Of a DNA stretch of 20,300 nucleotides, positions 1 to 17,464 are shown in pieces. How positions within the stretch are numbered: position 1 is the first letter of the stretch; every line of letters starts with the position of its first letter. Location: positions 1-20,300 of IMG/VR virus record IMGVR_UViG_3300037993_000313. The stretch is one strand, 5' to 3'. The notes beneath the pieces were generated by a model. That model searched no databases. It saw nothing but the letters and a program-made list of their open reading frames with translations, and was not told the DNA's origin. This DNA comes from a virus. The position numbers were made by a program, and so were the translations under genes.

Positions 1-640
1 TCGCACGGATCAGGGAAGCCGCGCTCTTGACCCGGACGAGCGAGGCGGCGCTCTTCGCACGGATCAGGGAAGCCGCGCTCTTGACCCGGACGAGCGAGGC
101 GGCACTCTTCGCGCGGACCTTCGAGGACGCGGTCCGGGAGACGAGACTCCGCGACGCCAGGCTCTTCGCACGGACCAAAGATGCTGCACTCTTGACTCGC
201 GCCAGCGATGCCGCGCTCTTGGCCCGAATTACACTGCGGGAATGCCTCGCGCGCGACGCCGCGCTCTTCGCCCGGACTAACGAGGCCGCGCTCTTGGCGC
301 GGACCAATGACGCCGCTGATTTCACACGGACGAGCGATGCCGATGCCGCAGATTTCACGCGCACCAGCGACGCTGCGCTCTTCGCCCGGACGAGCGATGC
401 TGCGCTCTTGACGCGCACCAGCGACGCAGCGCTCTTGGCACGGACGAGCGATGCGGCGCTCTTGACGCGCACCAGCGACGCCGCGCTCTTCGCCCGGACG
501 AGCGATGCGGCGCTCTTGACGCGCACCAGCGACGCCGCGCTCTTGCGGACGACGCTGCGGGAATGGCGCGCGCGGGATGCCGCGCTCTTCACACGGGCGA
601 GCGACGCCGCGCTCTTCGCCCGGACGAGCGATGCGGCGCT
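1..640 (-). repeat. 27-bp tandem repeat array, degenerate, with about 54-bp alternation
   Basis: Units such as CGCTCTTGACGCGCACCAGC alternate with CGCTCTTCGCCCGGACGAGC, so two 27-bp versions (encoding KSAASLVRV and KSAASLVRA) form a 54-bp alternating pattern, clearest at about 370-540. The array stays in frame throughout, with no unique spacers, so it is a coding satellite. Confidence 0.85.
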
Positions 641-751
641 CTTGACCCGAACGGCGGACGCGGACGCGCTGCGCGATCGGCTCTGGGATCGTTCCTCGAT
701 CACTGCCTGTGGAATCGCCGGCGCGCAGAACCTCGGCGGGAAATGTCTCAT
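1..751 (-). CDS. Lys/Ser/Ala nonapeptide-repeat protein (partial, runs off left edge)
   Basis: I do not recognise a family. The ATG at 751 is preceded by AAGGAG at 757-762 with a 5-base spacer, and the frame is open for all 250 codons to the window edge; I scanned it for stops. After about 20 unique residues (MRHFPPRFCAPAIPQAV...) and a short Ser-Arg run, the protein becomes a nine-residue repeat, KSAASLVR followed by V or A, in roughly two dozen copies. A variant block, KSAASRARHSRSV, interrupts it twice, near 241-300 and 541-600, so there is a higher-order repeat. The DNA repeat is 27 bp. The neighbouring gene carries the same nonapeptide near its C-terminus and a matching HSRSIVRKSSASLIR block, so the two are probably paralogous. 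The position after the tail-tip genes suggests a virion surface or fibre role, but that is inference. The C-terminus is not visible. Confidence 0.8.
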   Translation of the reverse strand, partial: MRHFPPRFCAPAIPQAVIEERSQSRSRSASASAVRVKSAASLVRAKSAASLARVKSAASRARHSRSVVRKSAASLVRVKSAASLVRAKSAASLVRVKSAASLVRAKSAASLVRVKSAASLVRAKSAASLVRVKSAASASLVRVKSAASLVRAKSAASLVRAKSAASRARHSRSVIRAKSAASLARVKSAASLVRAKSLASRSLVSRTASSKVRAKSAASLVRVKSAASLIRAKSAASLVRVKSAASLIRA

Positions 752-756
752 GTCCG

Positions 757-762
757 CTCCTT
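757..762 (-). promoter_or_regulatory. Ribosome binding site deciding the 751 start
   Basis: AAGGAG on the minus strand, five bases upstream of the ATG at 751-749 and just after the TAA of the preceding gene (771-769). It shows that the nonapeptide-repeat protein is a separate cistron and not a continuation of the Ser/Arg-rich gene. Confidence 0.75.
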
Positions 763-768
763 ATCGGC

Positions 769-2409
769 TTAACAAGGGCCGTTCGCCACGCTTCGTGCGC
801 CGGAGTTAGCGCCCGCAAGCGAACCACTGTAGCTGTAGAACGTGTATGGGTTTCCCGAAGTCGGATCGACCGGGTGCTGACCGGTAGGTGTGACCTCATA
901 ATATGCGGGAGGGCCGGAGGGTCCCGACATTTCCAAAATCCAAGCCTTCTGCGAATCGTCAATATCCGAGGTCTTCCACTCAAGCGTTATGGGGACGAGT
1001 AGTGATGAATACACCGGCCCCAGCGCACGAGTGAGCGTCCACGATCCGTTCAGGTAAGCGAAATCGCCGGTCATCCCGGAAACGGTGAGGCAGAGATAAT
1101 CCGGGGGCGGCGCGGCCTCCGAACGCGATCTCTTGCTCTTCCAGCGAACGAGAGAGGCTGCGCTCTTCGACCGTATCAGCGACGCCGCACTCTTGGCGCG
1201 TATCAGCGACGCGGCGCTCTTCGACCGGACGAGGGACGCGGCGCTCTTCGACCGGACGAGGGACGCTGCGCTGAGCCGCTTGACCACGCTGCGGCTCTTC
1301 TTGCTCGCGCTGTGCCGCTTGACCGTGCTGCGGCTCTTCTTGCTCGCGCTTCTCGCCCGAATAAGCGACGCCGAGCTCTTCCGGACGATGCTCCGGGAGT
1401 GCCGGTGTACCTGAGAGAAATGCCGGCTCGTGGACCGATGTTCCGACGCCTTCCGGCTGACCGATTTGTGATGGGAGACCACGCTCTTGCTCATGCGGCT
1501 ATAGGATCTCGCCAGGCTGAGACTCAAACGGCTCCGACTGCGGACCTTGCTCCGGCTGATCCGGCTGCGGCTGATCCGGCTCCGGCTGATCCGGCTGCGG
1601 CTGATCCGGCTCCGGCTGATCCGGCTGCGACTCATCCGGCTCTTGCTCCGCGCGACACTGCGGCTGATGTGACTGCGGCTGCGGGCCAGGCTTCGGCTCA
1701 ATCGGCTGCGGCTTCGCCGGTGGCTCATCGCACTGCTGCTGCGGGCGATGCTCCGGCTGATCCGGCTGCGGGATTTTGCCAGGCTCCGGCTGATCCGGCT
1801 CCGGCTGAGGCGGCTTCGACTGAGTCGGCTGCGGCTGATCCGGCTTCGGCTCAGGCGGGATCGGCTCAACCGGCTCCGGCTGATGCGGCTGCGGCTGATG
1901 CGACTCCGGCTGATTCCGCTCCTGCTCTTCCCCATGCTTGCGCTGCGTCCCTTGCTGCCGCTGACATGGCTCCGGCTGTGGACGACGCTCTTGCTCAGGC
2001 GGCTGCGGCTGACGCGGCTGCGGCTCAACCGGCTGCGACTGATCCGGCTGCGGCTCATGCGACTGCGACGCAGTTTCCGGCTGGCGCTGCGGATGTCGCT
2101 CGCGCTTTCGCTGCGGTCCAGACTTCTGCTGACTTTGCGGCTCGCGCTGCGGATGTCGCTGGCGCTCTCGCTGCGGTCGCGGCTGGCGCTGCGGACGTCG
2201 CTCGCGCTCTCGCTGCGTTCCCGGCTCTTGCTCTCGAATTTCGATCTGCTGCGGTCTCTGGATTGCGAGCCGCTCACGCTCGCCGCGGCGGACCGGCCGC
2301 CGAGTTGCACGCCGCCGTCGGGCAGCCTGCGAGCCCAGAGGCCGGGGCCAAGCTCGACGATGTTGCCCTCAGCCTGCGTCGCGTCGTCGTTGATGAAAAC
2401 AATCTGCAT
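769..2409 (-). CDS. Ser/Arg pentapeptide-repeat putative tail protein with C-terminal globular domain
   Basis: 546 aa from the ATG at 2409, which overlaps the TGA of the upstream gene by one base (TGATG). A longer in-frame ATG at 2529 would add 40 residues inside that gene and is less likely. Layout: residues 1-38 are a short ordinary segment (MQIVFINDDATQAEGNIVEL...). Residues 39-112 are Ser-rich with mixed charge and repeat DRSESASDIRSASRK. Residues 113-290 are mostly SRSR plus I, L, V or M, with an interlude around 206-259 where hydrophobics are spaced 4 then 7. Residues 290-377 are His/Lys/Ser-rich. Residues 378-424 hold KSAASLVRx nonapeptides. Residues 436-546 form a globular, aromatic-rich domain (LTVSGMTGDFAYLNGSWTL near its start). 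The function is unknown. Its place downstream of the tape measure and tail-tip genes suggests a fibre, adhesin or other virion-exposed protein. The extreme Arg content is very unusual for a phage structural protein. Confidence 0.85.
   Translation of the reverse strand: MQIVFINDDATQAEGNIVELGPGLWARRLPDGGVQLGGRSAAASVSGSQSRDRSRSKFESKSRERSESASDVRSASRDRSESASDIRSASRKVSRSLDRSESASDIRSASRKLRRSRMSRSRISRSRLSRSRVSRSRLSKSVVHSRSHVSGSKGRSASMGKSRSGISRSRISRSRISRSRLSRSRLSRSRISRSRLSRSRLSRSRISRSLAKSRSRISRSIARSSSAMSHRRSRSRLSRSLARSRSHISRSVARSKSRMSRSRISRSRISRSRISRSRISRSRISRSKVRSRSRLSLSLARSYSRMSKSVVSHHKSVSRKASEHRSTSRHFSQVHRHSRSIVRKSSASLIRARSASKKSRSTVKRHSASKKSRSVVKRLSAASLVRSKSAASLVRSKSAASLIRAKSAASLIRSKSAASLVRWKSKRSRSEAAPPPDYLCLTVSGMTGDFAYLNGSWTLTRALGPVYSSLLVPITLEWKTSDIDDSQKAWILEMSGPSGPPAYYEVTPTGQHPVDPTSGNPYTFYSYSGSLAGANSGARSVANGPC
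1138..1278 (-). repeat. 27-bp tandem repeats (KSAASLVRx block) inside the Ser/Arg gene
   Basis: About five tandem 27-bp units encode KSAASLVRS, KSAASLIRA and similar in residues 378-424 of the Ser/Arg-rich protein. The same unit makes up most of the gene that starts at 751, giving two nearby tracts of homologous satellite-like DNA in the same orientation. Confidence 0.85.
1540..2073 (-). repeat. 15-bp tandem repeats encoding SRSR[ILVM] pentads
   Basis: On the plus strand the sequence is dominated by units such as CTGATCCGGCTGCGG and CTGATCCGGCTCCGG, with the longest regular runs near 1555-1635. Read on the minus strand the unit gives Ser-Arg-Ser-Arg plus one aliphatic residue. Third positions vary between copies, so protein sequence is kept more strictly than DNA sequence, which points to selection on the protein. 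Confidence 0.8.
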
Positions 2410-3086
2410 CAGCTTCCCGCCTCGATCCGAACAATTCCGGGCGATTTCTGCGTGGCATACAAAGGCGCGCTCAGCCGGATGTAATAGGCGTCCTGCCACC
2501 AGTCGCTGGCGCGGCTTCTGATAAACCACGAACCGGCGCGCTCGCGGGTGATCTCGACGATCGCGCAGCCGTCGCCATTGTCGAAGTCATCCGCCAGGTC
2601 CTGGACGCGCAGCGGGCCGGCCTCGCTGAAGATGGCCAGCGGGCTTCGCATCGAGCAGCCGAGCCGGTCTCCCGATTGCAGGTCCCAGGGCCATCCATCG
2701 GGAAGACTGTCTTTGTCGTAGCGAACCGGCGAGGGACCGGCGTATCGCACCCAGGGCACATCGCCGTCCTTGACGCCGGTGAACTGAATGATGCCGAGCC
2801 GAGAGAGTCCGCCCGTCGTCGGCATCCGGCAACCGCCGTACTGAGGACTGAGGCCCTCCGGGAACTGGTAAATCTCGACCACGGACCAGGGCTCGGCGTC
2901 GTCGCCGGAATAAGCCGCCTGGATGCAGTCGCGGAGGTCCTGCGGCGTCGGCTGGAGGCCGAAGGTGACGCCGGATGGTCCGGCGCGTCCGGCGACGCCG
3001 GGGCCGGCGCGGAAGCGGTCCGCCATGGCGGCGCCGCGCTGGACGTCGCGGAAGAACTTGGAATTCAGCTTGTCGCCTGCGTTCAT
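2409..3086 (-). CDS. Putative tail-tip / minor tail protein, unrecognised
   Basis: 225 aa with no family I can name. The ATG at 3086 follows the upstream TGA after one base (TGACATGA), and the gene's own TGA overlaps the next ATG by one base, so it is tightly coupled in the tail operon. The N-terminal 50 residues are polar and Gly/Ala-rich (NAGDKLNSKFFRDVQRGAAM). Residues 50-225 look like a mixed beta fold rich in aromatics (WSVVEIYQFPEG, GPLRVQDLADDFDNGDGCAIVEI, WFIRSRASDWWQDAYYIRL). No transmembrane segment or catalytic motif is evident. Position between a tail protein and the repeat proteins suggests a tail-tip or fibre-attachment component; this is inference from gene order only. Confidence 0.7.
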   Translation of the reverse strand: MNAGDKLNSKFFRDVQRGAAMADRFRAGPGVAGRAGPSGVTFGLQPTPQDLRDCIQAAYSGDDAEPWSVVEIYQFPEGLSPQYGGCRMPTTGGLSRLGIIQFTGVKDGDVPWVRYAGPSPVRYDKDSLPDGWPWDLQSGDRLGCSMRSPLAIFSEAGPLRVQDLADDFDNGDGCAIVEITRERAGSWFIRSRASDWWQDAYYIRLSAPLYATQKSPGIVRIEAGS

Positions 3087-3087
3087 G

Positions 3088-3939
3088 TCACCAGTCTTCC
3101 TGAGAGCCGCTCATGTTCAGGTCGCCGAAGTTGTACGCTTCCAGCAGATCGTTTCCGGCGGTGAGATATCGCCGCGGCATCCGCACATTGCCGAGGATGC
3201 TGATCGTGTAGCGCGTCTTGTCGCCCGTGGTGGATTTGTCCGCCGGCTGAAGATTTGTGTATGCCCACGGATGCTGATGCATGGGGTACGCGACGCCGTT
3301 ATAGATTTGGAGAAGGTGCTCGAACTGGAAGGTGCAGACGTAGAACGGGCTGCGCTGGCGCGTCAATTCCGCCATCGAGAACAGCCAGTAGCCTTCGCTG
3401 TAACTCTCGGCCGGGCTGTCGGTGACGAAGAAATCGGGGGACCATCCGTCCTCATTCACGGAACCGACGAGCAGCTCGCAGATCTCGCGCTGGCCTTCTG
3501 CGCCCTCGACCATGTCGGCGGTCAGCGCTGCAACGATCGTGAGCGTTGAGAGCGGGATGATCCTCGGCTCGCCAATGTTGTCCGCATTCATCGCCTGGGG
3601 CGGATCGTCCAGGGAGACGATGAGGTTTTCGGTCTGCCCCTGCGCGCGCTCATCCCACCGCACGATTCCGGGATTGAAGCCTTCGTACATCAGGGTGACG
3701 AGGGATGCGCTTTGCGAGAAGCGATCCGCGCCGTAGTCCACGAGATAGACCTTCGTGTCGTCGCCGTCCACCGTGATGTCTATCGTGTCCGGCACTCCGC
3801 TCAAGTCGCTGATCGCATCCTCGGGATCGTCGTCACAGAGGTACATTCGCTGGACGGTGATCTGGCGCGCAAAGCCGTCATATTTGACCTTGCCGAGCGT
3901 GCGCGTGGCGTCGGTTTCGTAGAGACGATCGTAGCTCAT
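3088..3939 (-). CDS. Putative tail structural protein, unrecognised
   Basis: 283 aa, ATG at 3939, one base after the TGA of the tape-measure-like frame (TGACATGA). Acidic and rich in predicted beta sequence (RQITVQRMYLCDDDPEDAI, DTIDITVDGDDTKVYLVDYG, KTRYTISILGNVRMPRRYL), with no transmembrane or signal sequence. Its place immediately downstream of the tape measure corresponds to the distal tail or baseplate-hub position in siphoviruses, but I see no diagnostic Dit or Tal motif. The call rests on synteny only. Confidence 0.7.
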   Translation of the reverse strand: MSYDRLYETDATRTLGKVKYDGFARQITVQRMYLCDDDPEDAISDLSGVPDTIDITVDGDDTKVYLVDYGADRFSQSASLVTLMYEGFNPGIVRWDERAQGQTENLIVSLDDPPQAMNADNIGEPRIIPLSTLTIVAALTADMVEGAEGQREICELLVGSVNEDGWSPDFFVTDSPAESYSEGYWLFSMAELTRQRSPFYVCTFQFEHLLQIYNGVAYPMHQHPWAYTNLQPADKSTTGDKTRYTISILGNVRMPRRYLTAGNDLLEAYNFGDLNMSGSQEDW

Positions 3940-3940
3940 G

Positions 3941-4510
3941 TCAGTTCCCGACGATCAGAGGCTGGCCGGCATTCCGGCGCAATTGATCGAGAATCGCGTC
4001 GAGCTTCGCGCCCAGGTCGCCGGACGCCTGCGGCACGGCGCCGGCGACGACGCCCTGGGCGCCCGGCGCGCCGGCGGCGTAGATCGTCCTGTCGAGCTTC
4101 CGCGTCTTTTCGATGTCGCGGGCCGCGCGCTCGTAGCCGGTCGCCTGGACGCCGGCTTCCTGAGTGGCGGCTTCTTCAGCTTCGGCCGTGGTCAGTTGCG
4201 CGTGGCCGGCGTGCAGGGCGAGCGCACCCGCAGTCGCACCGAGAGGGCCGGCTGCACCCACAGCCGCTTTGACGTACCAGGGTTGGTCCTGGAATTGCGC
4301 GCCAAGCGAGCCGCGGCGGCCTTGCGCGTCCTGATAAAGTTTATCCTGCAAAGCCCGCGCGTCCGCGGCTTTCCGGCGAAGTTCGGTTTCCTGCGTGGCC
4401 AGGTCGCGGTCCTGTCGCTCCGCTTCCAGCGTGCGCATGATGGGCGCGGGCGTGCCGAGCGCCTTCGCGGCGGCGAGCTCGGCTTTTTCGCGCGCGGCGC
4501 GCGCCGCTTT
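3941..4510 (-). CDS. Tape-measure-like protein, C-terminal part downstream of in-frame TAG
   Basis: The reading frame continues for 189 sense codons directly after the amber codon at 4513-4511, in the same frame as the upstream part. It opens with Ala/Lys/Glu helix (KAARAAREKAELAAAKAL) and a coiled-coil-like stretch (LEAERQDRDLATQETELRRK). It then has one hydrophobic Gly/Ala segment (VKAAVGAAGPLGATAGALAL) typical of tape measure proteins, followed by further helix. The only clear internal ATG is at 4438, and no Shine-Dalgarno sequence precedes it, so independent translation is doubtful. With the upstream part the whole frame is 335 codons plus stop, short for a siphovirus tape measure. It may be a disrupted single gene, a readthrough product or a sequencing error. 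Confidence 0.6.
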   Translation of the reverse strand, partial: KAARAAREKAELAAAKALGTPAPIMRTLEAERQDRDLATQETELRRKAADARALQDKLYQDAQGRRGSLGAQFQDQPWYVKAAVGAAGPLGATAGALALHAGHAQLTTAEAEEAATQEAGVQATGYERAARDIEKTRKLDRTIYAAGAPGAQGVVAGAVPQASGDLGAKLDAILDQLRRNAGQPLIVGN

Positions 4511-4948
4511 CTACGCCTCGGGACCGCCCTGGAGCGCCTCCAGCTTGCGCTGCTGGAGTTCGAGCGCAGCATCGCCGCTGATGGTCCGGGAAATCTGCGT
4601 GGCGACGCCGCCGACGAAAGGAAGATCGCGGAGGATTTCGCGCTGCGCCTCGCGGAACTTGATGAGGTGCTGGAGCGCCTCATTCCCCTTGCCGGGATCA
4701 ATGAGGTTCTGTTCCTCGATCGCCTTCAGGCCGCCGGCCACGGATGCGCTCGCCAGGCGCACGCCTTCCATGATCCCGATGCCGCGAAGAATCTGCGATT
4801 TGAAATGGCCGGTGAGCTTTTCGCCGAGCGACGTGCCCGCGCGCTCGGCCTCCGCGCCGGCTTCCTGATGCGCGGCGCGCAGGCCGCCCGAGAGTTCCTG
4901 CGCGTCCGCGCGGATTTTCACGAAGACGTCGCCCAGATCTTCACCCAC
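4511..4948 (-). CDS. Tape-measure-like protein, N-terminal part (ends at amber TAG)
   Basis: 145 aa from a GTG at 4948, with AAAGGA upstream. It begins just after the TAG (4954-4952) that ends the frameshift extension of the tail chaperone, as expected for a tape measure gene. The N-terminal pattern GDVFVKIRADAQELSGGLRAA is the type seen at the start of tail tape measure proteins. The rest is mainly helical (LASASVAGGLKAIEEQN, LQQRKLEALQGG). Tape measures set tail length and occupy the tail tube before DNA ejection. The frame stops at TAG inside what should be a continuous helix, and coding continues in frame beyond it. The mutated codon could have been CAG, GAG or AAG. Assignment is by position and composition. 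Confidence 0.7.
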   Translation of the reverse strand: MGEDLGDVFVKIRADAQELSGGLRAAHQEAGAEAERAGTSLGEKLTGHFKSQILRGIGIMEGVRLASASVAGGLKAIEEQNLIDPGKGNEALQHLIKFREAQREILRDLPFVGGVATQISRTISGDAALELQQRKLEALQGGPEA

Positions 4949-6492: not shown

Positions 6493-6918
6493 TTACTGCG
6501 GGGCAAGCTGGTACTGGACCATCCATTCGGCCCAGATCTTTATGATGTAAGAGTCCACCACTTCCTGCGGGATCGTCTCGCGGCGGACCTGGATGCAGGT
6601 TGCATCCTGGAGCCGCAAGGTCGCGTCGAGCAGCTCGGCATCGAGCTGCTTCACGATCGCGAGGGCGCGCGCGCCGCGGTCGAACTCGAATTCGTCATAG
6701 ACGTCCACCTGGACGCGCGGCTCCTCGATGTTGCGGCCGCCGAAGATGCGCAGGATTGGTCCGCCAATCGGCGTGAGGATGACGCGCGGAAATCCCGCGT
6801 CGCCGATGGACTTCGGCGCCAGAATCTCGTAGATGCGCCCTCCGACGCGCGCCGTCGTCGCATTCGCGCCCGGCCGCGACTTCAGATAATCCATCATCGC
6901 GCTGATGACTTCGGTCAT
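6493..6918 (-). CDS. Tail terminator / tail completion protein (DUF3168/gp17-like)
   Basis: 141 aa. The start ATG at 6918 overlaps the upstream stop by four bases (ATGA). Pattern: an N-terminal helix (EVISAMMDYLKSRPG), a GGRIYEILAP strand, FPRVILTPIGG, then PRVQVDVYDEFEFDRGARAL followed by a helix. This arrangement (short, bound edge strands with 'RVQVDVYD' and a following helix) is typical of tail terminator proteins that cap the tail tube and join it to the head. Neighbours agree: an HK97 gp10-like protein upstream and the tail tube downstream. Ends with TAA, 46 bases before the tail tube start. Confidence 0.75.
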   Translation of the reverse strand: MTEVISAMMDYLKSRPGANATTARVGGRIYEILAPKSIGDAGFPRVILTPIGGPILRIFGGRNIEEPRVQVDVYDEFEFDRGARALAIVKQLDAELLDATLRLQDATCIQVRRETIPQEVVDSYIIKIWAEWMVQYQLAPQ

Positions 6919-7487
6919 TTGCCGATCCCTCGCGCGAGGATCTCCCGGATCTTCTTCAGGTTATTTCGCAGCGCCGGCCGCAGATAGGGCCGCGCGGGAA
7001 TGACGACGGTCAGCTTGGACTTCTTCGTCAGCGCGATGCCCTTGTAGAAGTCGGATTGATCGGCTGCCGATTGCGCGCCGGACATTTCGGCCATTCCTTT
7101 GCCCTTCAACCCGCTGCGGAATGCGCGCGCGCTGCGCTTCATGCCCGTTCGCGCTGCGCCTTCCATTTTGTAGTACATCGCCCAGGCCCAGGCGCGCATG
7201 CGCGCCGTCACGGTCGGATGCGTCGTGCCGCCGAGTTCGTGGATCCGCGCGTAGATCAGCTTCACGACACCGATGCGGCCGGTGATCTCCGGTCCTTCGC
7301 CCTGGATGTCGTAATTGATCGAATTGATGAGTTGTCCCGATCGGCGATGCAAACCGCTCTCGCCGCCGGTTCGCACGTTCTGCCGCGCGGCGCGTTGCAC
7401 GAGGATGCACGCGGCCTCGACATTGCCTTTCAGCCGCGCCTCGATCTTCCGCGCAATCTCATCGCCGTGATAGGTGTTTTCGGCCAT
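6915..7487 (-). CDS. HK97 gp10-like head-tail connector / tail completion protein
   Basis: 190 aa from the ATG at 7487 (MAENTYHGDEIARK), preceded by a weak GGTGA; the frame is open to 7532 but the extra residues look non-coding. Diagnostic features: a helical N-terminus, LHRRSGQLINSINYDIQ, a central IYARIHELGGTTH (the 'YA..hE.G' motif of the family) and near the end VIPARPYLRPALRNNLKKI, matching the 'ipARPfLrPAl' ending of HK97 gp10 relatives. These proteins act at the head-tail interface or in tail completion. A basic insert (GMKRSARAFRSGLKGKGM) lies between the two motifs. The gene follows a 132-base gap carrying a dyad element and overlaps the next gene by ATGA. Confidence 0.8.
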   Translation of the reverse strand: MAENTYHGDEIARKIEARLKGNVEAACILVQRAARQNVRTGGESGLHRRSGQLINSINYDIQGEGPEITGRIGVVKLIYARIHELGGTTHPTVTARMRAWAWAMYYKMEGAARTGMKRSARAFRSGLKGKGMAEMSGAQSAADQSDFYKGIALTKKSKLTVVIPARPYLRPALRNNLKKIREILARGIGK

Positions 7488-7526
7488 TACATATTCACCA
7501 AGTTTGAAACTACGGACCGCTTCGCG

Positions 7527-7587
7527 GCACACGGATAACGCACGGGGCGGAAGTTCGGAACTTTCCGCACTGTGTAAATCCGTGTGC
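7527..7587. repeat. Nested inverted repeat in the connector-gene gap
   Basis: Outer arms GCACACGGAT (7527-7536) and ATCCGTGTGC (7578-7587) are perfect reverse complements. Inside them GCGGAAGTT (7547-7555) pairs with AACTTTCCGC (7559-7568) with one bulge. Just beyond lies a GGCGCC-type palindrome and CCGTGGTTGAAA (7600-7611). The ATCCGTG/CCGTGGTTG wording resembles short intergenic repeats scattered in some bacterial chromosomes. It fills most of the only sizeable gap (7488-7619) among the connector genes. Confidence 0.6.
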
Positions 7588-7619: not shown

Positions 7620-7931
7620 TCACCAGCTCTCGCAATCGAGCAAAAGAAACTTGTCCGCAAAATCCGGGTTCTTGATCGTCAGGATCCGGAAGAGCGTTCC
7701 CTCAAAGTTCACGCGATCGGTCGCGAGCACGTCGAGCCGCGCATTCGGGAGAAGAATGAGATGCGTCCCCATCGCGTCCGGCGCGCCGCCGCGCATGCGG
7801 ACCTGCTCGCTCGGCGTCGTCACGCGGCACAGGACCGCTTCGTGCAACGGCTGCCAGTTTTCGGGCTGGCCATCCGCCGCGCGGTTGCGCTCGATGGCGA
7901 TCCGATGAATGCACATCGCTCGTCGGCTCAT
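7620..7931 (-). CDS. Head closure / head-tail adaptor protein
   Basis: 103 aa from the ATG at 7931, which overlaps the upstream TGA by four bases (ATGA); the frame extends to 7991 but that start lies inside the previous gene. Beta-barrel-type sequence: MSRRAMCIHRIAIERNRAAD, NWQPLHEAVLCRVTTPS, GTHLILLPNARLDVLATDRV, FEGTLFRILTIKNPDFADKF. The order 'parameters that should be converted to strands, D-x-V, then F...ILTIKNP' resembles head closure or adaptor proteins (SPP1 gp16 / HK97 adaptor type) that seal the connector after packaging. It follows the gp6-like adaptor, as expected. Family membership is inferred from pattern, length and synteny. Confidence 0.65.
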   Translation of the reverse strand: MSRRAMCIHRIAIERNRAADGQPENWQPLHEAVLCRVTTPSEQVRMRGGAPDAMGTHLILLPNARLDVLATDRVNFEGTLFRILTIKNPDFADKFLLLDCESW

Positions 7932-8128
7932 CGCTCTGCCGTCCAATCCGACACGCAGACGTTGCGAGGCTGCGTTTTCGTCTTTGACCAAAGATGAACT
8001 TCGGCCGCCTTGTAGCGGCCGGTGGTGAAGATGCGGTAAACGAACCGCAACTCGGCGTTCGTCAGCTTCCGCAGAAGTCCATTGCGGGCGGTGACAACCA
8101 TCGCCGTCCTGCGCGCGTCATTGCTCAT
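7928..8128 (-). CDS. Small basic protein of the connector cluster, unrecognised
   Basis: 66 aa, overlapping both neighbours by four bases (ATGA at each end), which supports it as real despite its size. Sequence is basic with a central helix-like stretch (RNGLLRKLTNAELRFVYRIF) followed by TTGRYKAAEVHLWSKTKTQ. No known domain is recognised. It lies between the gp6-like adaptor and the head closure protein. It may be a connector accessory or a minor structural protein. Confidence 0.65.
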   Translation of the reverse strand: MSNDARRTAMVVTARNGLLRKLTNAELRFVYRIFTTGRYKAAEVHLWSKTKTQPRNVCVSDWTAER

Positions 8129-9012
8129 AAGATGATCCTCCGGTGGAGCGCCAGGGCGGATTGCAGGTCTGCGCCGCGCTCGATGATGCTCTTCGAGTGC
8201 CAGGTCAGCCCGCCGAAGGTTTGATCCTTCAGATTCTGATCGCCCTCGATGTCATCGAGCAGCCTCTTGACCATCTCGATGCAGATCTGTTCGATCTCGG
8301 CCGGGACGGTCGTGAAGCCGCCGGTGTAATCCACGAAGATGTTGCGCTTGCCCTGCGGCCATCCGGCCTGGCGCCAGATGCGGCCCGAGGTTTCGTCCAC
8401 TTCGAGGTCCTGCACCGGCGATCCGGCGCAATCGAGCGTGTACGCCGCATTGAGGCAGCCGGCGGACATGACTGGCCGGATCTCCCTCGCCGGCCAGGGC
8501 GACGCGCCGGCGGGAATCGTCGCGCTCCAGTTCGAGCCGAGCGCGTTGATCGCTGCGGCCAGCGTCGCAATGGTCGTGTACGCGGCGAATAGCAGCGAGG
8601 AATTGCCCGCGCTCGCGCCGCCGGCGACGATGAGCGTGAGCGCCGTCGCGGACGCGCTGATGACGGCATACGCCGCATCCGGAGACGTATTCACGATCGT
8701 CAGGCAGTCGCGCCGATCCACGCAGCAGCGGCGCAGAGCCGTGATCGGATAGTTCGGCAGCCACATCGCGCGATGATGTCCGCTGTCCGGCCATTGGACG
8801 TAACCGAGGTACGGCGCCATGTCCTCATTCCGCGCGCCGATCCCGTCCAGCCAGGCGAGATAATCGCGGCTGACGAAATTGCGCTGGCAGAAATGCTCGA
8901 TCTCGCCGCTCGCGGCCTCGATCAGGCGAGCAAGGAGCGTCGTGTCGTCCGCGTGCGTGCCGAGATATGCTTGCACGTTCGCCAGCGTGGTCAGCGCGTA
9001 AGGATCGCTCAT
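8125..9012 (-). CDS. gp6-like head-tail connector (adaptor) with inserted domain
   Basis: 295 aa; ATG at 9012 overlaps the upstream stop by four bases. The N-terminus (LTTLANVQAYLGTHADDTTLLARLIEAASGEIEHFCQRNF) is the typical helical start of gp6/YqbG-type adaptors that attach below the portal. The C-terminal portion (RNIFVDYTGGFTTVPAEIEQICIEMVKRLLDD) is also characteristic, 'v.Y.gGf..vP.di...c..la'. Between them, about residues 105-205, sits an extra Ala/Thr/Ser-rich beta domain (SATALTLIVAGGASAGNSSL, ATLAAAINALGSNWSATI), which makes this longer than the usual adaptor; insertions of this style are known in some connector proteins. Confidence 0.8.
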   Translation of the reverse strand: MSDPYALTTLANVQAYLGTHADDTTLLARLIEAASGEIEHFCQRNFVSRDYLAWLDGIGARNEDMAPYLGYVQWPDSGHHRAMWLPNYPITALRRCCVDRRDCLTIVNTSPDAAYAVISASATALTLIVAGGASAGNSSLLFAAYTTIATLAAAINALGSNWSATIPAGASPWPAREIRPVMSAGCLNAAYTLDCAGSPVQDLEVDETSGRIWRQAGWPQGKRNIFVDYTGGFTTVPAEIEQICIEMVKRLLDDIEGDQNLKDQTFGGLTWHSKSIIERGADLQSALALHRRIIL

Positions 9013-9338: not shown

Positions 9339-9842
9339 TCATGCCGAAGTCCCGATGACGTAGATATCGTAGGTGATCGTCGCAGCGCCGGCGTCAATTT
9401 TCAGGAGATCGCCGGTTCCTGGAGTGACCACGTATGCGTCTGTCGGCGACCAGAGCAACAGAATTCCGCCCGGCCCGACGATGACCGTATCCGTCGTTGC
9501 GCCGAACATCGAGGCGAGCGCATTTGCCGCCGCGCCGCCGATCGTCAGGGCCGCGCCGGAGAGCGTCGCCTTGTTCGCAATCACGAGACCGCGAATCTTC
9601 TTGAACGTGAGCACAGCGCCGAAGACGTTCACCGGACCGGCCGCGAAGTCCAGCGTTTCACTCGCACCGATCAGAGACCGCTCGTCGTACCAGACGAGAT
9701 CGGCTTGCTCGGCGCCGGTCCCCTGCGCCAAGCTGTCGCTCAGGTCGAGCCGGAAATCATCCAGCGGCGCGCCGATGTCCGGCGCGTTCTGGTAGAGATG
9801 CTGGAGCACCAGCTTCAGGGTCATGTTCAGTGTCGTGCTCAT
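9339..9842 (-). CDS. Putative capsid or connector-associated structural protein
   Basis: 167 aa, ATG at 9842 overlapping the previous TGA by four bases. The N-terminus (TTLNMTLKLVLQHLYQNAPDIGAPLDDFRLDLSDSLAQG) is helical then extended. The rest is Gly/Ala/Thr-rich beta sequence (ETLDFAAGPVNVFGAVLTF, KKIRGLVIANKATLSGAAL, TPGTGDLLKIDAGAATITYD), consistent with a beta-sandwich structural protein such as a small decoration or fibre protein. No signal peptide is present. Position is between capsid-block genes and the connectors. Family not recognised. Confidence 0.65.
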   Translation of the reverse strand: MSTTLNMTLKLVLQHLYQNAPDIGAPLDDFRLDLSDSLAQGTGAEQADLVWYDERSLIGASETLDFAAGPVNVFGAVLTFKKIRGLVIANKATLSGAALTIGGAAANALASMFGATTDTVIVGPGGILLLWSPTDAYVVTPGTGDLLKIDAGAATITYDIYVIGTSA

Positions 9843-12159: not shown

Positions 12160-13542
12160 TCAGGTGCGGCTCGCCAGCGCGACGAACGGGCTGACGGTGT
12201 TCACGGACCGGCGCGGCGTCAGCGCCTGGCTCCACCACGGCTGTCCGTCCGTGTAGAGCAGGAACCGGAACGCCGTCTCGTTGTAATCGAATCTCAGATG
12301 GATCGAGGCGTCGGCGACGATGCCGCCAGTCTGCGACGCCATCTGATTCGTCCCGATGAGGTACTCCTCGAAGTCGGCCAAGATGATGTCGCCGAGGGTG
12401 CCGCAGGTTTGCGGCTTCTCGCTGAGGATCACCGGGCGGCCGTAGATCGTGCCGTTCGGCGCGGACTCGATGCCGTTGATGCCGTTCGGCTGCCAGACCG
12501 GGATCCCGGCCGTGCCGATCTTCCGGTGCAGCCCTGCGAGCTGCGGGAAGCTGTCCAGCCCGACGAGCCAGATCGCCCGCTTCTGCGAAGCCGGGTTCAA
12601 CCGCGAGAGCATCTTGTCGATGTTCTCTACAACGATCGTTCCGGCCGTCTGTCCGGTTTCCGGCTGCACGGTGACGAGGCACGGAGCTTTCATGATGCCC
12701 ATCGCGCTGTTGGCGCCGTTGCCCCAGATGTTGCGGTCGTCTTCCTCGAACGCGATCGCTTCGCCGAAGAGCTTGAAGAGGAGCGGCTCCAGCGAGATGG
12801 GAGACCACTGCAGGATCGTGTTGTCCACGTAGCAGAGGCCATAAAGCTCCCGGAGCGTGAGCGTGATCTTTTGCAGTTTCGGCATGCTGCCGCTCATCTG
12901 CTGCGTCTTGTCGCGCCCGGCCGGCGTGATGCCGCCGTAGACGGACGAGACGTGCGAGATATCGTTGATGGCCGGGATCTGGATCGAGCCGGACATCATC
13001 GGCACCGCCGTGGCGCGCGGCCGGACGATGCTGTCTTCCAGCGCCCGCTTGAGCAGCGCCTCGCGGAACTCGACCGGGATGAGGAAGCCGCCGAACGAGC
13101 CGACATCCGGCCGCATCTCGTCCGAACCCGGCGCCTTGATGCTCCAGCCGTCGACGTCGAAGTTCTTCGAGGACCACTTCCGGAAGGCTTCCGTCGTCGA
13201 GCCGACCTGCCCGCAGCCCGCCTTGAAGACGTCGTAGGCGAAGTGCGAGAAGCCCTTGAAGCCGCCCTTCCGGTCCGGATCGGCGATCCCGCCGATCACT
13301 TTCGCCTTCTTCATCCGGTTCGCCTTGTCGGCATCCCACTTCTGCTTCTGGTCTTCGAGGAGCTTCTGCTTGAGCTCGGCCTTATACTCCTCGGGCGTCT
13401 GCTCGACGATGCGGTCCGAATCCACCAGCGCCTTCGCCAGGTCCTCATCGAGGTCCTCGATGAACTTCCCGGCCTCGACGTGCAGATCGCCGAAGTCGGT
13501 GTCCACCTTCACGCGGTACGTCTTTCCCGTCGCGGTAGGCAT
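12160..13542 (-). CDS. Major capsid protein (HK97 fold)
   Basis: 460 aa from the ATG at 13542 (MPTATGKTYRVKV), chosen because AAGGA lies nine bases upstream; the ATG at 13551 is too close to that site. Residues 1-130 are charged and helical (EEYKAELKQKLLEDQKQKW), like the delta/scaffold domain cleaved by the prohead protease. Downstream are typical HK97 capsid features: GGFLIPVEFREALLKRALED (the 'GGylVP' start of the shell domain), SGSIQIPAINDIS, ESAPNGTIYGRPVILSE, LGDIILADFEEYLIG and VADASIHLRFDYNETAFRFL. Neighbours are the protease upstream and decoration-type genes downstream. It is expected to be the most abundant product and is flanked by gaps with stem-loops on both sides. Confidence 0.9.
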   Translation of the reverse strand: MPTATGKTYRVKVDTDFGDLHVEAGKFIEDLDEDLAKALVDSDRIVEQTPEEYKAELKQKLLEDQKQKWDADKANRMKKAKVIGGIADPDRKGGFKGFSHFAYDVFKAGCGQVGSTTEAFRKWSSKNFDVDGWSIKAPGSDEMRPDVGSFGGFLIPVEFREALLKRALEDSIVRPRATAVPMMSGSIQIPAINDISHVSSVYGGITPAGRDKTQQMSGSMPKLQKITLTLRELYGLCYVDNTILQWSPISLEPLLFKLFGEAIAFEEDDRNIWGNGANSAMGIMKAPCLVTVQPETGQTAGTIVVENIDKMLSRLNPASQKRAIWLVGLDSFPQLAGLHRKIGTAGIPVWQPNGINGIESAPNGTIYGRPVILSEKPQTCGTLGDIILADFEEYLIGTNQMASQTGGIVADASIHLRFDYNETAFRFLLYTDGQPWWSQALTPRRSVNTVSPFVALASRT

Positions 13543-13798
13543 TGCAGTCATTCCTTTTCGCTAACCGCAATGACCTACGTTCTCCATCGGCCCGAGCCTG
13601 ATCGTTCTCGTGCGCCAAACCGATCTCCGGCCCGCACAAACCGACTGAACGCTCCGATCGAAACAGTCCTTTTCAGCACTACGCCAGTGTGCATGGCAAT
13701 TTCGGCTCTCGGCCGGCCTTCCAAAATGCCACAGGAAGGCCGGAAACCGTTTTAGAACGTTTCGCAAAACGTACCATGCCTAATCGTCCTCTGGCAGC
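13543..13798. other. Intergenic region between protease and major capsid genes
   Basis: 256 bases with no convincing gene. It holds a perfect 10-bp stem (CCGGCCTTCC 13713-13722 with GGAAGGCCGG 13734-13743, 11-base loop) and a palindrome ACGTTT-CGCA-AAACGT at 13757-13772. I looked for -35/-10 pairs on the minus strand and found none I would defend. The capsid ribosome binding site is at its left end. A late promoter or attenuator for the capsid gene would fit here. Confidence 0.6.
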
Positions 13799-15241
13799 TC
13801 AGCGAGCCTTCTGAGCGGCTCCCACGGTCATTTTGCCTCTGAGACGCGCCTGCTCCTCGATTTCGAGCGTTTCCGCATCGCCCACCACCCGCAAAGTCGG
13901 CTTCGCGGGCGGTTCCAGCGCGATAATCTTCGGCATGTGCGCCTTCGGCGGTTCCTGTCCATCCAGGATGCGCATCTTGCCGTCATCCGATTCCGGCTTT
14001 TCCGCCGGCTCGAACTTGATCGGCTTGAGCTTGTGCTCCGTCAGCCATTTCTTCGCCTGCTCGACCGTGAACTTCGCCGCGTCGAATCGGATCGCCTGAA
14101 GCGTCATCGAGTCGTCGCCCTTCAGCTTGCCGAAGATCGCGTGGATGCCTTTCCCGAACTTGTCGTTGATCCGGCGAAATGACTTCTCGTCGAAATCGCC
14201 CGGCTCGCGCATCCTTGCCGCGTGCTCGCTCGGATAGGGTTTCTGGCCGGTCAGGAACGCGCCATCGGCGCCGCAGGGATCGCCTTCGCTCACGCCGCAC
14301 TTCGCGCCGAGGATCTCCGCCGCCTTGTCGGCATCTTCCTGATCGTGCTCGTCCTCGTAATGCTCCTGCGTCGTCGGCATGCCGACCTTCTCGCAGTGCT
14401 CGTTGAGGTGCTCCATGACGTCCGAGGAAGCGCCGTCTTTCACCGCCTGATCGCGCGCCGCCTTCAATCCTTCGACGTGGAGATAGAGCGTTCCGTCCGT
14501 GTGCCGGCCATGCTCGCCTTCCTTCGTCGCGCCCTCGACGTGATGGTGCGCGTACATCCACGTCGGCGGCGCGGTCGGATCGCCCGGATCGGCGAACGCC
14601 TTGCGCGGGAGCTTCGACTGATCCACGTCTTTCCATTCCGGCGGATCGTGATGCTGAGTGTGATCGTGCGTGTGGCCCTTCTCCATCCGTCCGGCCAGCG
14701 CCTTCAATTCCGGCGGAAGCCAGAGTCCCTTGCCGAGCGCCAACCGCAGCGCGTTCGGATTGCTCGGGACCGGGCAAGCCGAGTATTCCAGCATGTCGCA
14801 CTCGTCGTAGATGCGGCGGACGCCGGCCCAATCCGGCCGCGCCTTGAGATCATCCTCGGTCGGCTGATGAAACTTTCCGCCGACGGGCATGAAGCCGATG
14901 GACCACGCCCGGAGAAAATCATCGGCGTAGAGATCGAAGATGCCTTGCGCGAATTCAGTCGCCGCGAACTTCGGCTTCGAGAGCAGACAATCCTTCTGCG
15001 TCTTCTCCCAGAGCGACTTTGCGATCGGCGGCTGATCGTATTTGTGCGCCCAGAGCACCACCGGATTGTTCCGATAATTCTTCAGCCCGATTCCGCGCGG
15101 GAGAATCACCTCATCGTCCCGATCGCGCGTGTCCGTCGAGACTTTCACAGTCAGCGTCTTCTCCGCGCGATCCACATCGTCCACCTTGCCGATGAAGGTC
15201 AAATCCTTCTGCTGCGGCGGCCGCGTCAGTGCGTTGCCCAT
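13799..15241 (-). CDS. Prohead serine protease (S78 family) with His-rich insertion and C-terminal extension
   Basis: 480 aa, ATG at 15241 with AGGAG six bases upstream. The N-terminal third is a caudovirus prohead protease: DDVDRAEKTLTVKVSTDTRD, VVLWAHKYDQPPIAK with the likely catalytic His66, RAWSIGFMPV with the likely catalytic Ser114, and LEYSACPVPSNPNA with an acidic Glu152. It cleaves capsid delta domains during maturation. From about residue 185 comes an unusual region: HTHDHTQHHDPPEWKDVDQS, then WMYAHHHVEGATKEGEHGRH, followed by acidic helix and a Cys-containing segment (GAKCGVSEGDPCGADG). Residues about 365-415 (IRFDAAKFTVEQAKKWLTEH) resemble the XkdF-type conserved segment. It is twice the usual protease length. 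No separate scaffold gene is seen, so the extension may serve that role. Confidence 0.85.
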   Translation of the reverse strand: MGNALTRPPQQKDLTFIGKVDDVDRAEKTLTVKVSTDTRDRDDEVILPRGIGLKNYRNNPVVLWAHKYDQPPIAKSLWEKTQKDCLLSKPKFAATEFAQGIFDLYADDFLRAWSIGFMPVGGKFHQPTEDDLKARPDWAGVRRIYDECDMLEYSACPVPSNPNALRLALGKGLWLPPELKALAGRMEKGHTHDHTQHHDPPEWKDVDQSKLPRKAFADPGDPTAPPTWMYAHHHVEGATKEGEHGRHTDGTLYLHVEGLKAARDQAVKDGASSDVMEHLNEHCEKVGMPTTQEHYEDEHDQEDADKAAEILGAKCGVSEGDPCGADGAFLTGQKPYPSEHAARMREPGDFDEKSFRRINDKFGKGIHAIFGKLKGDDSMTLQAIRFDAAKFTVEQAKKWLTEHKLKPIKFEPAEKPESDDGKMRILDGQEPPKAHMPKIIALEPPAKPTLRVVGDAETLEIEEQARLRGKMTVGAAQKAR

Positions 15242-15250
15242 CTCGTTCTC

Positions 15251-17464
15251 CTAAGCTGCAACGTGTTTCCAATGCCGGAATGCGATCCGGATCAGCATCT
15301 TCTCTCCAATGAGCACCGGCTCCAGCGCGCAGATGCAACGCGGATGGAGCGGCGGATGTGGCACGTCGGAATAGTCGCAGCGCATGTCGCCGCCGTCCGC
15401 GCCCGCGAGGATGTCGCCCTTCGCGGCGAATACTTCGCCAAGCTTCATCATCTCGCTGTCGGGACCGTATTGCTCCGCGAGCGCCCGGCAGAATTCGCAC
15501 GCGGCCGGATCCGCATCCCAGTAATAGCCTGCGACCTGGCCGGACATCTTCCACGCCTCGACCGTGCCCGCATTCAGCGCGCGCGAGCCTTCGGTCTCAG
15601 CGATCGTCAGTGATCGCGACCGTTCGGCGTAATCGAAGACGCCGTTGATCCCGTCCGCGATCTCCTTATACGTCTGCCCTTCGCCGAGTCCCTGCTTGAG
15701 GACCTGCCGCACCTGGTCATACGTAGTCTCGTTGACGGCGTGCGAGAAGCGGAACGTATAATCGTCCAGGAAGCTCTGCACTTCCGGGCGCGCGATGTCG
15801 AAGCTGATCTGTGCGCCGATCTGTTCCGCGCCGGCGGCCGCGCCGGCTTTGATGTCCTGCTGGAGCAGATCGCGCGTGCCCTTCATGAACCGCTTCACCC
15901 ATTCGTTCTGTTCTTTGAGGTCGAACAGCTTGCGGTCCGCGGACATGATCCGCGCGTAGGATGCTTCGGCGAGGACCTCTTTGCGCTGCTCGGCGAAGAG
16001 CGCCCGCAATCGCCGCGCCAGGCGCTCCTCATTCGCGGATGCTTTGATCGCCTTCCGGGATGTCGGCGTAAAGATCGAAGCGCGGACGATCCGCACCTGA
16101 TCGCCTTCCGGATTGCGCGGCTGCGCGGGCGGCGCGGAGAACGCCGCCGGCGCGCGCTCAACCAACTGCCCGTCGAGCGCCGGATCCGCTTCAAGGTCGA
16201 ATATTTTGCGGACCTCATTGACATAAACGATGCCACTCGTCTGCGCCATCGCCTGGCCCTTTTGCAGGTTATAGGCGCGGTCCGGCGGCACCGGATTATC
16301 GAACGCGAAAAACAGATCGTCGTCAAAGCGCGAAATGAAGTCACGGTTCAGGCGGCCTTCGACGCGCCTGCACTGGGGCAAAATCGCGTCGCGCATGAAT
16401 GCGATGTCGCCCTGGACGGCGGAAGCGTCGGGCTTGGAGAGATCGAGCTTCGTCAGCGGAACGTGATAACACGCCGCGATTTCTTCCTTGCTCACCTTGC
16501 GGTCGGCGAGCGCCGCGAGCATCCGCATGTTCCCCATCATCGCCTCGAACTTGACCTTGAACGGCGCGATGGCGACCTTGCCGGCGTTCAGCGTGCCGGC
16601 GTACTTCTGATTCCAGATTTCCATCAGCCGTTTCCGCTGATCCTCATCAAGCCCCTCCTCTTCGGGCGATAGGATTCCGGCAGGCACGGCATTATTTTTG
16701 AAAAAGCGATCCGTGTAATCCTCGATGGTGGACTGGATCATCGTTCCGCCGTAAGCGGCGTGGCCCGCTCCATAGCCGAGGATCTGATGGATCGGGCTCG
16801 GCTGCCGAAAGAAGATCACCTCGTCCGTCTCGAAGACCGCCTGATTCGGCAGGAAGCCGAAGACATATTCATAGACTTCACCGGCGCGCGTCCAGTGCGG
16901 CCAGGTGTATTGGCTCGGCAAGACGGTGAACGCGCGGGGCAATCCATTGTGATCGAGATCGAGCGCCCAGAACGCCATCCCGCAGAGGTCAATATAAGTC
17001 GAGGTCAGCTCGATCGCGGAGAAGAAATCCCAACCCTCATTCACGTAATAAAGCGTGTCGAGCGAGGGATGCTCCATGACTTCGACGACCTCATCGGCGC
17101 CAGTGATGTACTTCTTGAGGCTGGAATCTCCGGCGAGATATTTCTGCTGCGCATTGCTGATCGCCTTGTGCGGGAAGAGCATTTTCTCCGCCGACTTCCG
17201 CGCGTAATACAGCCGGAGCGGAACCGTGGCGACGGCAATCGCCCGGATGTTCGCGCAGGCGTAGGTCCACGAACGGTATTGCCGGATCAGTTCCAGCGCG
17301 CGCTGCGGGATCCGCTCGCCGACGAATCCCTGCTGCCAATACTGGAAGATCGGATACCAGCCGTCAACGGAATCGAAGCTGACCTGGCCGCGGTCGAGCG
17401 ACTTCTGCTCTGCCGGAATGATCTTCACGCCGGCGCGTTCGAGAAGTGCGAGTTTATCGCTCAT
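15251..17464 (-). CDS. Portal protein fused to MuF-type minor head protein
   Basis: 737 aa from the ATG at 17464, which overlaps the terminase stop by four bases (ATGA); the ATG at 17473 would leave no room for a ribosome binding site. Residues 1-430 are a HK97-family portal (SWTYACANIRAIAVATVPLR, MAFWALDLDHNGLPRAFTVL, EVIFFRQPSPIHQILGYGAG, YHVPLTKLDLS). The portal forms the packaging ring and connector. Residues about 475-580 are helical linker. Residues 580-725 are a phage Mu F-type domain: TIAETEGSRALNAG, then YYWDADPAACEFCRAL with C656 and C659, and VPHPPLHPRCICALEPV with H707, C710 and C712, probable zinc ligands. The domain normally belongs to a separate minor head protein. Nothing resembling a C-terminal toxin follows it. 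Ends with TAG inside the next ribosome binding site. Confidence 0.85.
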   Translation of the reverse strand: MSDKLALLERAGVKIIPAEQKSLDRGQVSFDSVDGWYPIFQYWQQGFVGERIPQRALELIRQYRSWTYACANIRAIAVATVPLRLYYARKSAEKMLFPHKAISNAQQKYLAGDSSLKKYITGADEVVEVMEHPSLDTLYYVNEGWDFFSAIELTSTYIDLCGMAFWALDLDHNGLPRAFTVLPSQYTWPHWTRAGEVYEYVFGFLPNQAVFETDEVIFFRQPSPIHQILGYGAGHAAYGGTMIQSTIEDYTDRFFKNNAVPAGILSPEEEGLDEDQRKRLMEIWNQKYAGTLNAGKVAIAPFKVKFEAMMGNMRMLAALADRKVSKEEIAACYHVPLTKLDLSKPDASAVQGDIAFMRDAILPQCRRVEGRLNRDFISRFDDDLFFAFDNPVPPDRAYNLQKGQAMAQTSGIVYVNEVRKIFDLEADPALDGQLVERAPAAFSAPPAQPRNPEGDQVRIVRASIFTPTSRKAIKASANEERLARRLRALFAEQRKEVLAEASYARIMSADRKLFDLKEQNEWVKRFMKGTRDLLQQDIKAGAAAGAEQIGAQISFDIARPEVQSFLDDYTFRFSHAVNETTYDQVRQVLKQGLGEGQTYKEIADGINGVFDYAERSRSLTIAETEGSRALNAGTVEAWKMSGQVAGYYWDADPAACEFCRALAEQYGPDSEMMKLGEVFAAKGDILAGADGGDMRCDYSDVPHPPLHPRCICALEPVLIGEKMLIRIAFRHWKHVAA

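What the first reader, a model, noticed from the sequence alone, without database searches (positions are those of the whole stretch)
769..2409. Phage tail-region protein built of hundreds of Ser/Arg repeat residues
A 546-residue protein with about 390 residues of Ser/Arg-rich sequence sits in the tail operon, coupled to the upstream gene by TGATG and ending in a globular domain. Known phage repeat proteins in this position are mostly collagen-like or neutral fibres; I know of none made mainly of SRSR plus an aliphatic residue. The net charge must be strongly positive. Possible roles: electrostatic adhesion to acidic cell-surface polymers, a protamine-like DNA-binding protein carried in the virion, or a spacer in a fibre. 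The low-complexity core is flanked by ordinary sequence, so it is not a random frame.
Basis: partly seen in the sequence, partly recalled or inferred. Interest (0 to 1): 0.8.

Follow-up and report, generated by a model that had tools for sequence, protein, structure and literature searches.

The report
Cationic serine-arginine repeat phage tail proteins
An uncultivated phage has, at the end of its tail-gene region, two neighbouring genes for proteins built mostly of positively charged serine/arginine and serine/alanine/lysine repeats, most likely stalks or adhesive linkers at the tail tip, with a composition not found in any other phage searched here.

Summary
Differences between repeat copies fall mainly in third codon positions, so it is a maintained gene, not a stray frame. 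The order terminase, portal, capsid, connectors, probable tape measure, two tail genes, SR1, SR2 supports a virion/tail role. No homologue of the proteins or their ends was found in INPHARED, PHROGs, PDB, IMG/VR or 50 related contigs; DNA-pattern scans found no comparable SR gene. A distant relative has a Ser/Thr-rich linker between two domains in the second gene after its tape measure, so a variable low-complexity stalk at the tail tip is the best reading (about 0.5). Electrostatic adhesion and DNA binding remain untested. Short pentad tracts resemble pentapeptide repeats, but the register breaks. Verdict: a new compositional variant of repeat-stalk tail proteins; moderately interesting.

The parts
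769..2409 (-). SR1: 546-aa Ser/Arg-rich protein (whole gene)
   Evidence: codon-position excess; codon choice
2296..2409 (-). SR1 N-terminal segment, aa 1-38, acidic, possible anchor
   Evidence: three short strands at block pLDDT 46-61 in the single-sequence model; no family match
1105..2295 (-). SR1 low-complexity core, aa 39-435, net about +108
   Evidence: Pfam Pentapeptide 22.7 bits on the core alone, none on five shuffles
1996..2055 (-). pentad tract 1 (SRSR[ILV]), aa 119-138
1792..1911 (-). pentad tract 2, aa 167-206
1558..1632 (-). pentad tract 3, aa 260-284
1132..1272 (-). SR1 nonapeptide block (SAASLVRSK), shared with SR2
   Evidence: TRF array 1135-1272; protein match to SR2 62% over 90 aligned columns, E 9e-22
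772..1104 (-). SR1 C-terminal segment, aa 436-546, acidic, strands predicted, no homologue
   Evidence: (low confidence)
2..751 (-). SR2: second Ser/Ala/Arg/Lys repeat protein, 250+ aa, runs off the contig; 9-residue KSAASLVR[AV] repeats (54-bp unit)
   Evidence: DNA match to SR1 81% over 138 bp
757..762 (-). AAGGAG Shine-Dalgarno sequence of SR2
   Evidence: sequence read
2409..3086 (-). gene directly upstream, stop overlaps SR1 start (TGATG); 225 aa, no family
3088..3939 (-). gene next after the probable tape measure, 283 aa, no family
3941..4948 (-). probable tape measure gene with one in-frame TAG at 4511-4513
   Evidence: phrog_10780 E 0.0019

Best explanation
SR1 (with its paralogue SR2) is a late, virion-associated protein of the tail tip. 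A short N-terminal segment anchors it to the distal tail. The 397-residue Ser/Arg core is a long, mostly extended, non-globular stalk. The 111-residue beta-rich C-terminal segment is carried at the far end as the likely binding head. Because the stalk carries about +108 charges per chain, it would also hold the phage near acidic cell-surface polymers by electrostatics before specific binding. Shown: the gene, frame, operon position, charge, shared repeats with SR2, and selection on the protein sequence. Inferred: presence in the virion, N-terminal anchoring, stalk role, binding head, electrostatic adhesion.
For: Position: same strand and order as terminase, portal, capsid, connectors and probable tape measure, third gene after the tape measure, coupled by TGATG. 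Domain plan: acidic end, cationic low-complexity core, acidic beta-predicted end. The core falls on the disordered side of the charge-hydropathy line and the ends on the folded side. The repeats are kept at protein level. Distant relative G002 (L070/L159) shares the phrog_22694 protein (46%), portal and a protease-gene domain; its second gene after the tape measure has the plan N-terminal domain, Ser/Thr-rich linker, C-terminal domain. A repeat-rich protein also occurs downstream of the structural genes in Microcystis phage Mae-JY28.
Against: No sequence homology links SR1 or its neighbours to any known fibre, baseplate or receptor-binding protein. The match of the upstream gene to the G002 linker protein is only E 0.025 in a single comparison. 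The SR1 model is too poor to show a fold (mean pLDDT 39). The relative's linker is neutral Ser/Thr, so it supports a linker, not a cationic one. The host and its surface are unknown.
Confidence: 0.5

Rival explanations
1. Passive spacer: the core only keeps two ends apart; the Ser/Arg composition is a by-product of repeat expansion from AGC/CGN-rich units and the charge has no function of its own.
For: Tandem arrays of 15, 27 and 54 bp; blocks copied between SR1 and SR2; a relative uses neutral Ser/Thr in a similar place.
Against: Many synonymous changes with the residue pattern kept and near absence of Ser-Ser point to selection on the sequence; 121 basic against 13 acidic residues is hard to keep by drift.
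Confidence: 0.22
2. Protamine-like nucleic-acid binder carried in or on the virion: the SR core binds genome or host nucleic acid electrostatically.
For: SR-rich, pI 12, net about +100; second cationic protein beside it.
Against: It lies at the distal end of the tail genes, not by the capsid genes; it carries two acidic end segments, unlike compact protamines (own knowledge); no nucleic-acid-binding family matched.
Confidence: 0.12
3. Pentapeptide-repeat beta-helix fibre: S-R-[ILMV]-S-R pentads wind into a right-handed square helix with a cationic surface.
For: PF00805 above its cut-off (21.3 bits against 20.2 whole protein; 22.7 on the core), no match on five shuffles of the core; lag-5 and lag-20 self-similarity.
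Against: Only three short tracts keep the register; spacings between hydrophobic residues are 5 in 20 of 68 cases; position i-1 is Arg, not Asp/Asn; no beta structure in the core of the (low-confidence) model.
Confidence: 0.09
4. Non-virion host-takeover or regulatory protein expressed with the late operon.
For: No structural homologue found; the contig ends, so what lies beyond SR2 is unknown.
Against: Translational coupling to an upstream gene in the structural cluster.
Confidence: 0.07

Closest known systems
G002 (IMG/VR contig holding L070/L159): Ser/Thr-linker proteins of a distant relative
   Same: Second gene after the tape measure has an N-terminal domain, a low-complexity Ser-rich linker and a C-terminal domain; the phage shares the phrog_22694 protein and portal with the window
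   Different: The linker is Ser/Thr, uncharged and shorter; neither end domain is detectably homologous to SR1
Collagen-like phage side-tail fibres (PMC3368898)
   Same: Two terminal domains joined by a repetitive stalk in a tail protein
   Different: Gly-X-Y triple helix with known N- and C-terminal fibre domains; the SR1 core has 1.3% Gly and 0.5% Pro
Pentapeptide repeat proteins (PF00805)
   Same: Five-residue periodicity with Ser at i-2 and Ile/Leu at i in three tracts; score above cut-off
   Different: Arg instead of Asp/Asn at i-1, broken register, no fold shown
Repeat protein of Microcystis phage Mae-JY28 (L066 21071-22948)
   Same: Low-complexity repeats downstream of the structural genes in a phage sharing the phrog_22694 protein
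   Different: Ala/Gly/Ser/Thr repeats of about 20 residues, not cationic; repeats follow a different N-terminal domain
SAASNTGxx 9-residue repeat proteins of Pseudomonas phages (L161 2602-3951)
   Same: 9-residue period with SAAS motif, as in SR2
   Different: E 0.02-0.2 only, neutral NTG-containing repeats, near the CI repressor rather than tail genes

Membership tests
Phage tail fibre / receptor-binding protein | Encoded in the tail module downstream of the tape measure | tested here: inconclusive
   Order fits; the tape measure assignment is weak
Phage tail fibre / receptor-binding protein | Homology of N-terminal anchor or C-terminal head to known fibres | tested here: not met
Phage tail fibre / receptor-binding protein | Presence in virions, oligomeric, binds host | not testable with these tools
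   needs virions
Pentapeptide repeat family (PF00805) | Score above curated cut-off | tested here: met
   21.3 against 20.2 bits; 22.7 on the core, shuffles none
Pentapeptide repeat family (PF00805) | A(D/N)LXX consensus in unbroken tandem forming a beta-helix | tested here: not met
   Arg at i-1, 20 of 68 hydrophobic spacings are 5; no beta structure in core of a low-confidence model
Collagen-like phage proteins | Gly-X-Y repeats | tested here: not met
   1.3% Gly in the core
Serine-rich repeat adhesins (SRRP) | Ser-rich repeats with secretion signal and cell-wall anchor | tested here: not met
   By reading: no signal peptide at the N-terminus and no LPxTG motif or hydrophobic C-terminus (sequence); no predictor was run
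Protamine-like DNA-condensing proteins | Binds and condenses DNA | not testable with these tools
   composition alone is compatible

The most novel reading that the evidence does not exclude
The pair SR1/SR2 is the first example of cationic SR-repeat fibres: unfolded or rod-like polycationic stalks that let a phage stick to acidic cell or capsule polymers electrostatically, a way of first contact for which no description was found for tailed phages.
Probability: 0.2. Interest if true: 0.72.

Novelty: new variant of a known kind. Interest (0 to 1): 0.45.

Why it matters
Phage first contact is usually explained by folded fibres and spikes (own knowledge). A polycationic repeat stalk at the tail tip would be a different physical solution and would make a simple prediction (salt-sensitive adsorption). 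It also shows that SR-type low complexity, best known from eukaryotic proteins, is kept by selection in a prokaryotic virus.

Tried and rejected
Random or antisense frame: rejected for SR1. For SR2 the antisense ORF 3..809 has its third positions opposite those of SR2, so codon tests cannot separate them (z 5.9 against 5.4); strand rests on the Shine-Dalgarno sequence, the operon direction and in-frame repeats shared with SR1. First DNA pattern was badly made: MGN also matches Ser AGY, so nearly all hits were poly-Ser; redone with CGN (17 stretches, 9 stretches in species genomes), and all ORFs read were short, Ser-poor or cut by a contig end, apparently chance frames. The nonapeptide pattern gave nothing in IMG/VR. 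Structure prediction: SR1 uninformative (mean pLDDT 39); SR2 a long helix (mean pLDDT 70, other four models 30-56), which single-sequence prediction tends to give for such composition, so not used as proof. No fold search was run on these models. Homology between SR1 ends or neighbouring tail genes and relatives G001/G002: nothing better than E 0.008-0.025 in single comparisons. Literature searches found nothing on SR-repeat phage proteins.

Full report
Setting. The window is a 20,300-base linear IMG/VR virus record. All recognisable late genes lie on the minus strand: terminase large subunit 17461-19221, portal with MuF domain 15251-17473, maturation protease 13799-15241, HK97-type capsid 12160-13551, a phrog_22694 protein 9339-9842, head-tail adaptor 8125-9012, head completion 7620-7991, neck/tail completion 6915-7532, tail completion 6493-6918 (weak), and a probable tape measure 3941-4948 (weak). 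Then follow two genes without family (3088-3939, 2409-3086), SR1 (769-2409) and SR2 (751 to beyond the contig end). The phage is far from cultured ones: the best-covering terminase matches are about 22% identical.

The observation. SR1 is as described, on the minus strand: 546 aa, core aa 39-435 with 34.5% Ser and 23.9% Arg, net charge about +100, acidic ends, start overlapping the upstream stop as TGATG. SR1 and SR2 share repeat blocks: 81% DNA identity over 138 bp and 62% protein identity over 90 aligned columns, E 9e-22 with composition correction.

Is it a gene? In-phase comparison of repeat copies, chosen by DNA similarity and not by protein motif, gives mismatches of 59/28/99 (SR1) and 44/47/134 (SR2) at codon positions 1/2/3. 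The comparisons overlap, so these are not independent counts, but the excess at third positions is large. Synonymous codon choice fits the late genes for SR1 (z 10.4), and not for the long antisense ORF 1312..2484 (z -2.6). For SR2 the antisense ORF cannot be excluded by codon tests; the start signal, operon direction and shared in-frame repeats decide for the minus strand. Repeat number may be wrong if the assembly collapsed or expanded copies.

Relatives. Neither SR protein, nor SR1's ends, has a significant match in INPHARED, PDB (best E 0.013 to a linker-fused ribonuclease, taken as chance) or IMG/VR by peptide patterns. In PHROGs only SR2 gets a weak match, phrog_4433 of unknown function at E 0.006, taken as compositional. 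In Pfam the core scores as Pentapeptide; the ends score nothing. DNA patterns for SRSR[ILM]SRSR (IMG/VR) and three such units (84,980 species genomes) gave 17 and 9 stretches, none of them a long SR protein; two nonapeptides gave none. The SR scans fix Ser as AGY and Arg as CGN, so relatives with other codons or looser repeats would be missed. BLAST's low-complexity filter also hides the core itself from tblastn, so searches test mainly the ends. Through the phrog_22694 protein, 80 distant relatives were fetched; the upstream gene and the SR1 C-terminal end had no match in 50 records, with no positive control.

What the relatives show. G002 (L070/L159) carries Ser/Thr-rich tracts, several ending in TTTTTAP-like sequence, on several structural proteins, including its phrog_22694 protein, and its second gene after the tape measure is a 540-aa protein with a Ser/Thr-rich linker between two domains. 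Mae-JY28 and others have neutral repeat proteins near their structural genes. So variable low-complexity linkers are not rare in this loose group; what is unusual here is the composition and charge.

Fold. The core scores as Pentapeptide, shuffled cores do not, so the five-residue order is real, but only in three tracts; hydrophobic spacings are 5 in 20 of 68 cases, and the core lies on the disordered side of the charge-hydropathy plot. AlphaFold2 without alignment is uninformative for SR1 and proposes long helices for SR2; neither is proof.

Mechanism. Best reading: tail-tip stalk with a C-terminal head, the stalk adding electrostatic attraction (0.5 for a tail-tip stalk or adhesive linker as a whole; the electrostatic part alone about 0.2-0.3, a judgement). 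Rivals: passive spacer, protamine-like binder, pentapeptide beta-helix, non-virion protein. Sequence cannot separate them; salt-dependent binding, virion proteomics and CD would.

Novelty. A repeat-stalk protein in a tail region is a known kind; an SR/cationic one, and a pair of them, was not found anywhere searched. Literature searches, limited to open papers, gave nothing closer than collagen-like side-tail fibres (PMC3368898).

Noticed in passing
window 2-751, minus strand: Second Ser/Ala/Arg/Lys repeat gene (SR2) with 9-residue repeats, good Shine-Dalgarno sequence, cut by the contig end.
   Followed up: yes
window 4511-4513, minus strand: Single in-frame TAG splits the probable tape measure (3941-4948), otherwise open over 335 codons: error, pseudogene or readthrough.
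   Followed up: no
L070 4877-5479, 10341-10700, 12136-12519, 14079-15368; L159 6343-7965: In a relative phage several structural proteins, including the phrog_22694 homologue, carry Ser/Thr-rich tracts, several ending in TTTTTAP-like sequence.
   Followed up: partly
L090 485-2674; L080 5032-6675; L066 21071-22948: Other phages with the phrog_22694 protein have long repeat proteins (22-residue GQAANTLWGRLIAAVQGAYALN; Ala/Gly-rich repeats).
   Followed up: partly
window 13799-15241 (aa 334-444); L070 7111-7359; L136 5835-6152: The protease gene carries an extra C-terminal domain shared with relatives; in L070 it forms the start of the matching gene instead.
   Followed up: no
G001 25485-25967 and 34434-34880 (contig of L136): Distant relative with two copies of the phrog_22694 protein gene.
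   Followed up: no
L161 2602-3951; L162 78-900: Pseudomonas phages hold 9-residue SAASNTGxx repeat proteins that match SR2 only weakly (period and SAAS motif).
   Followed up: partly
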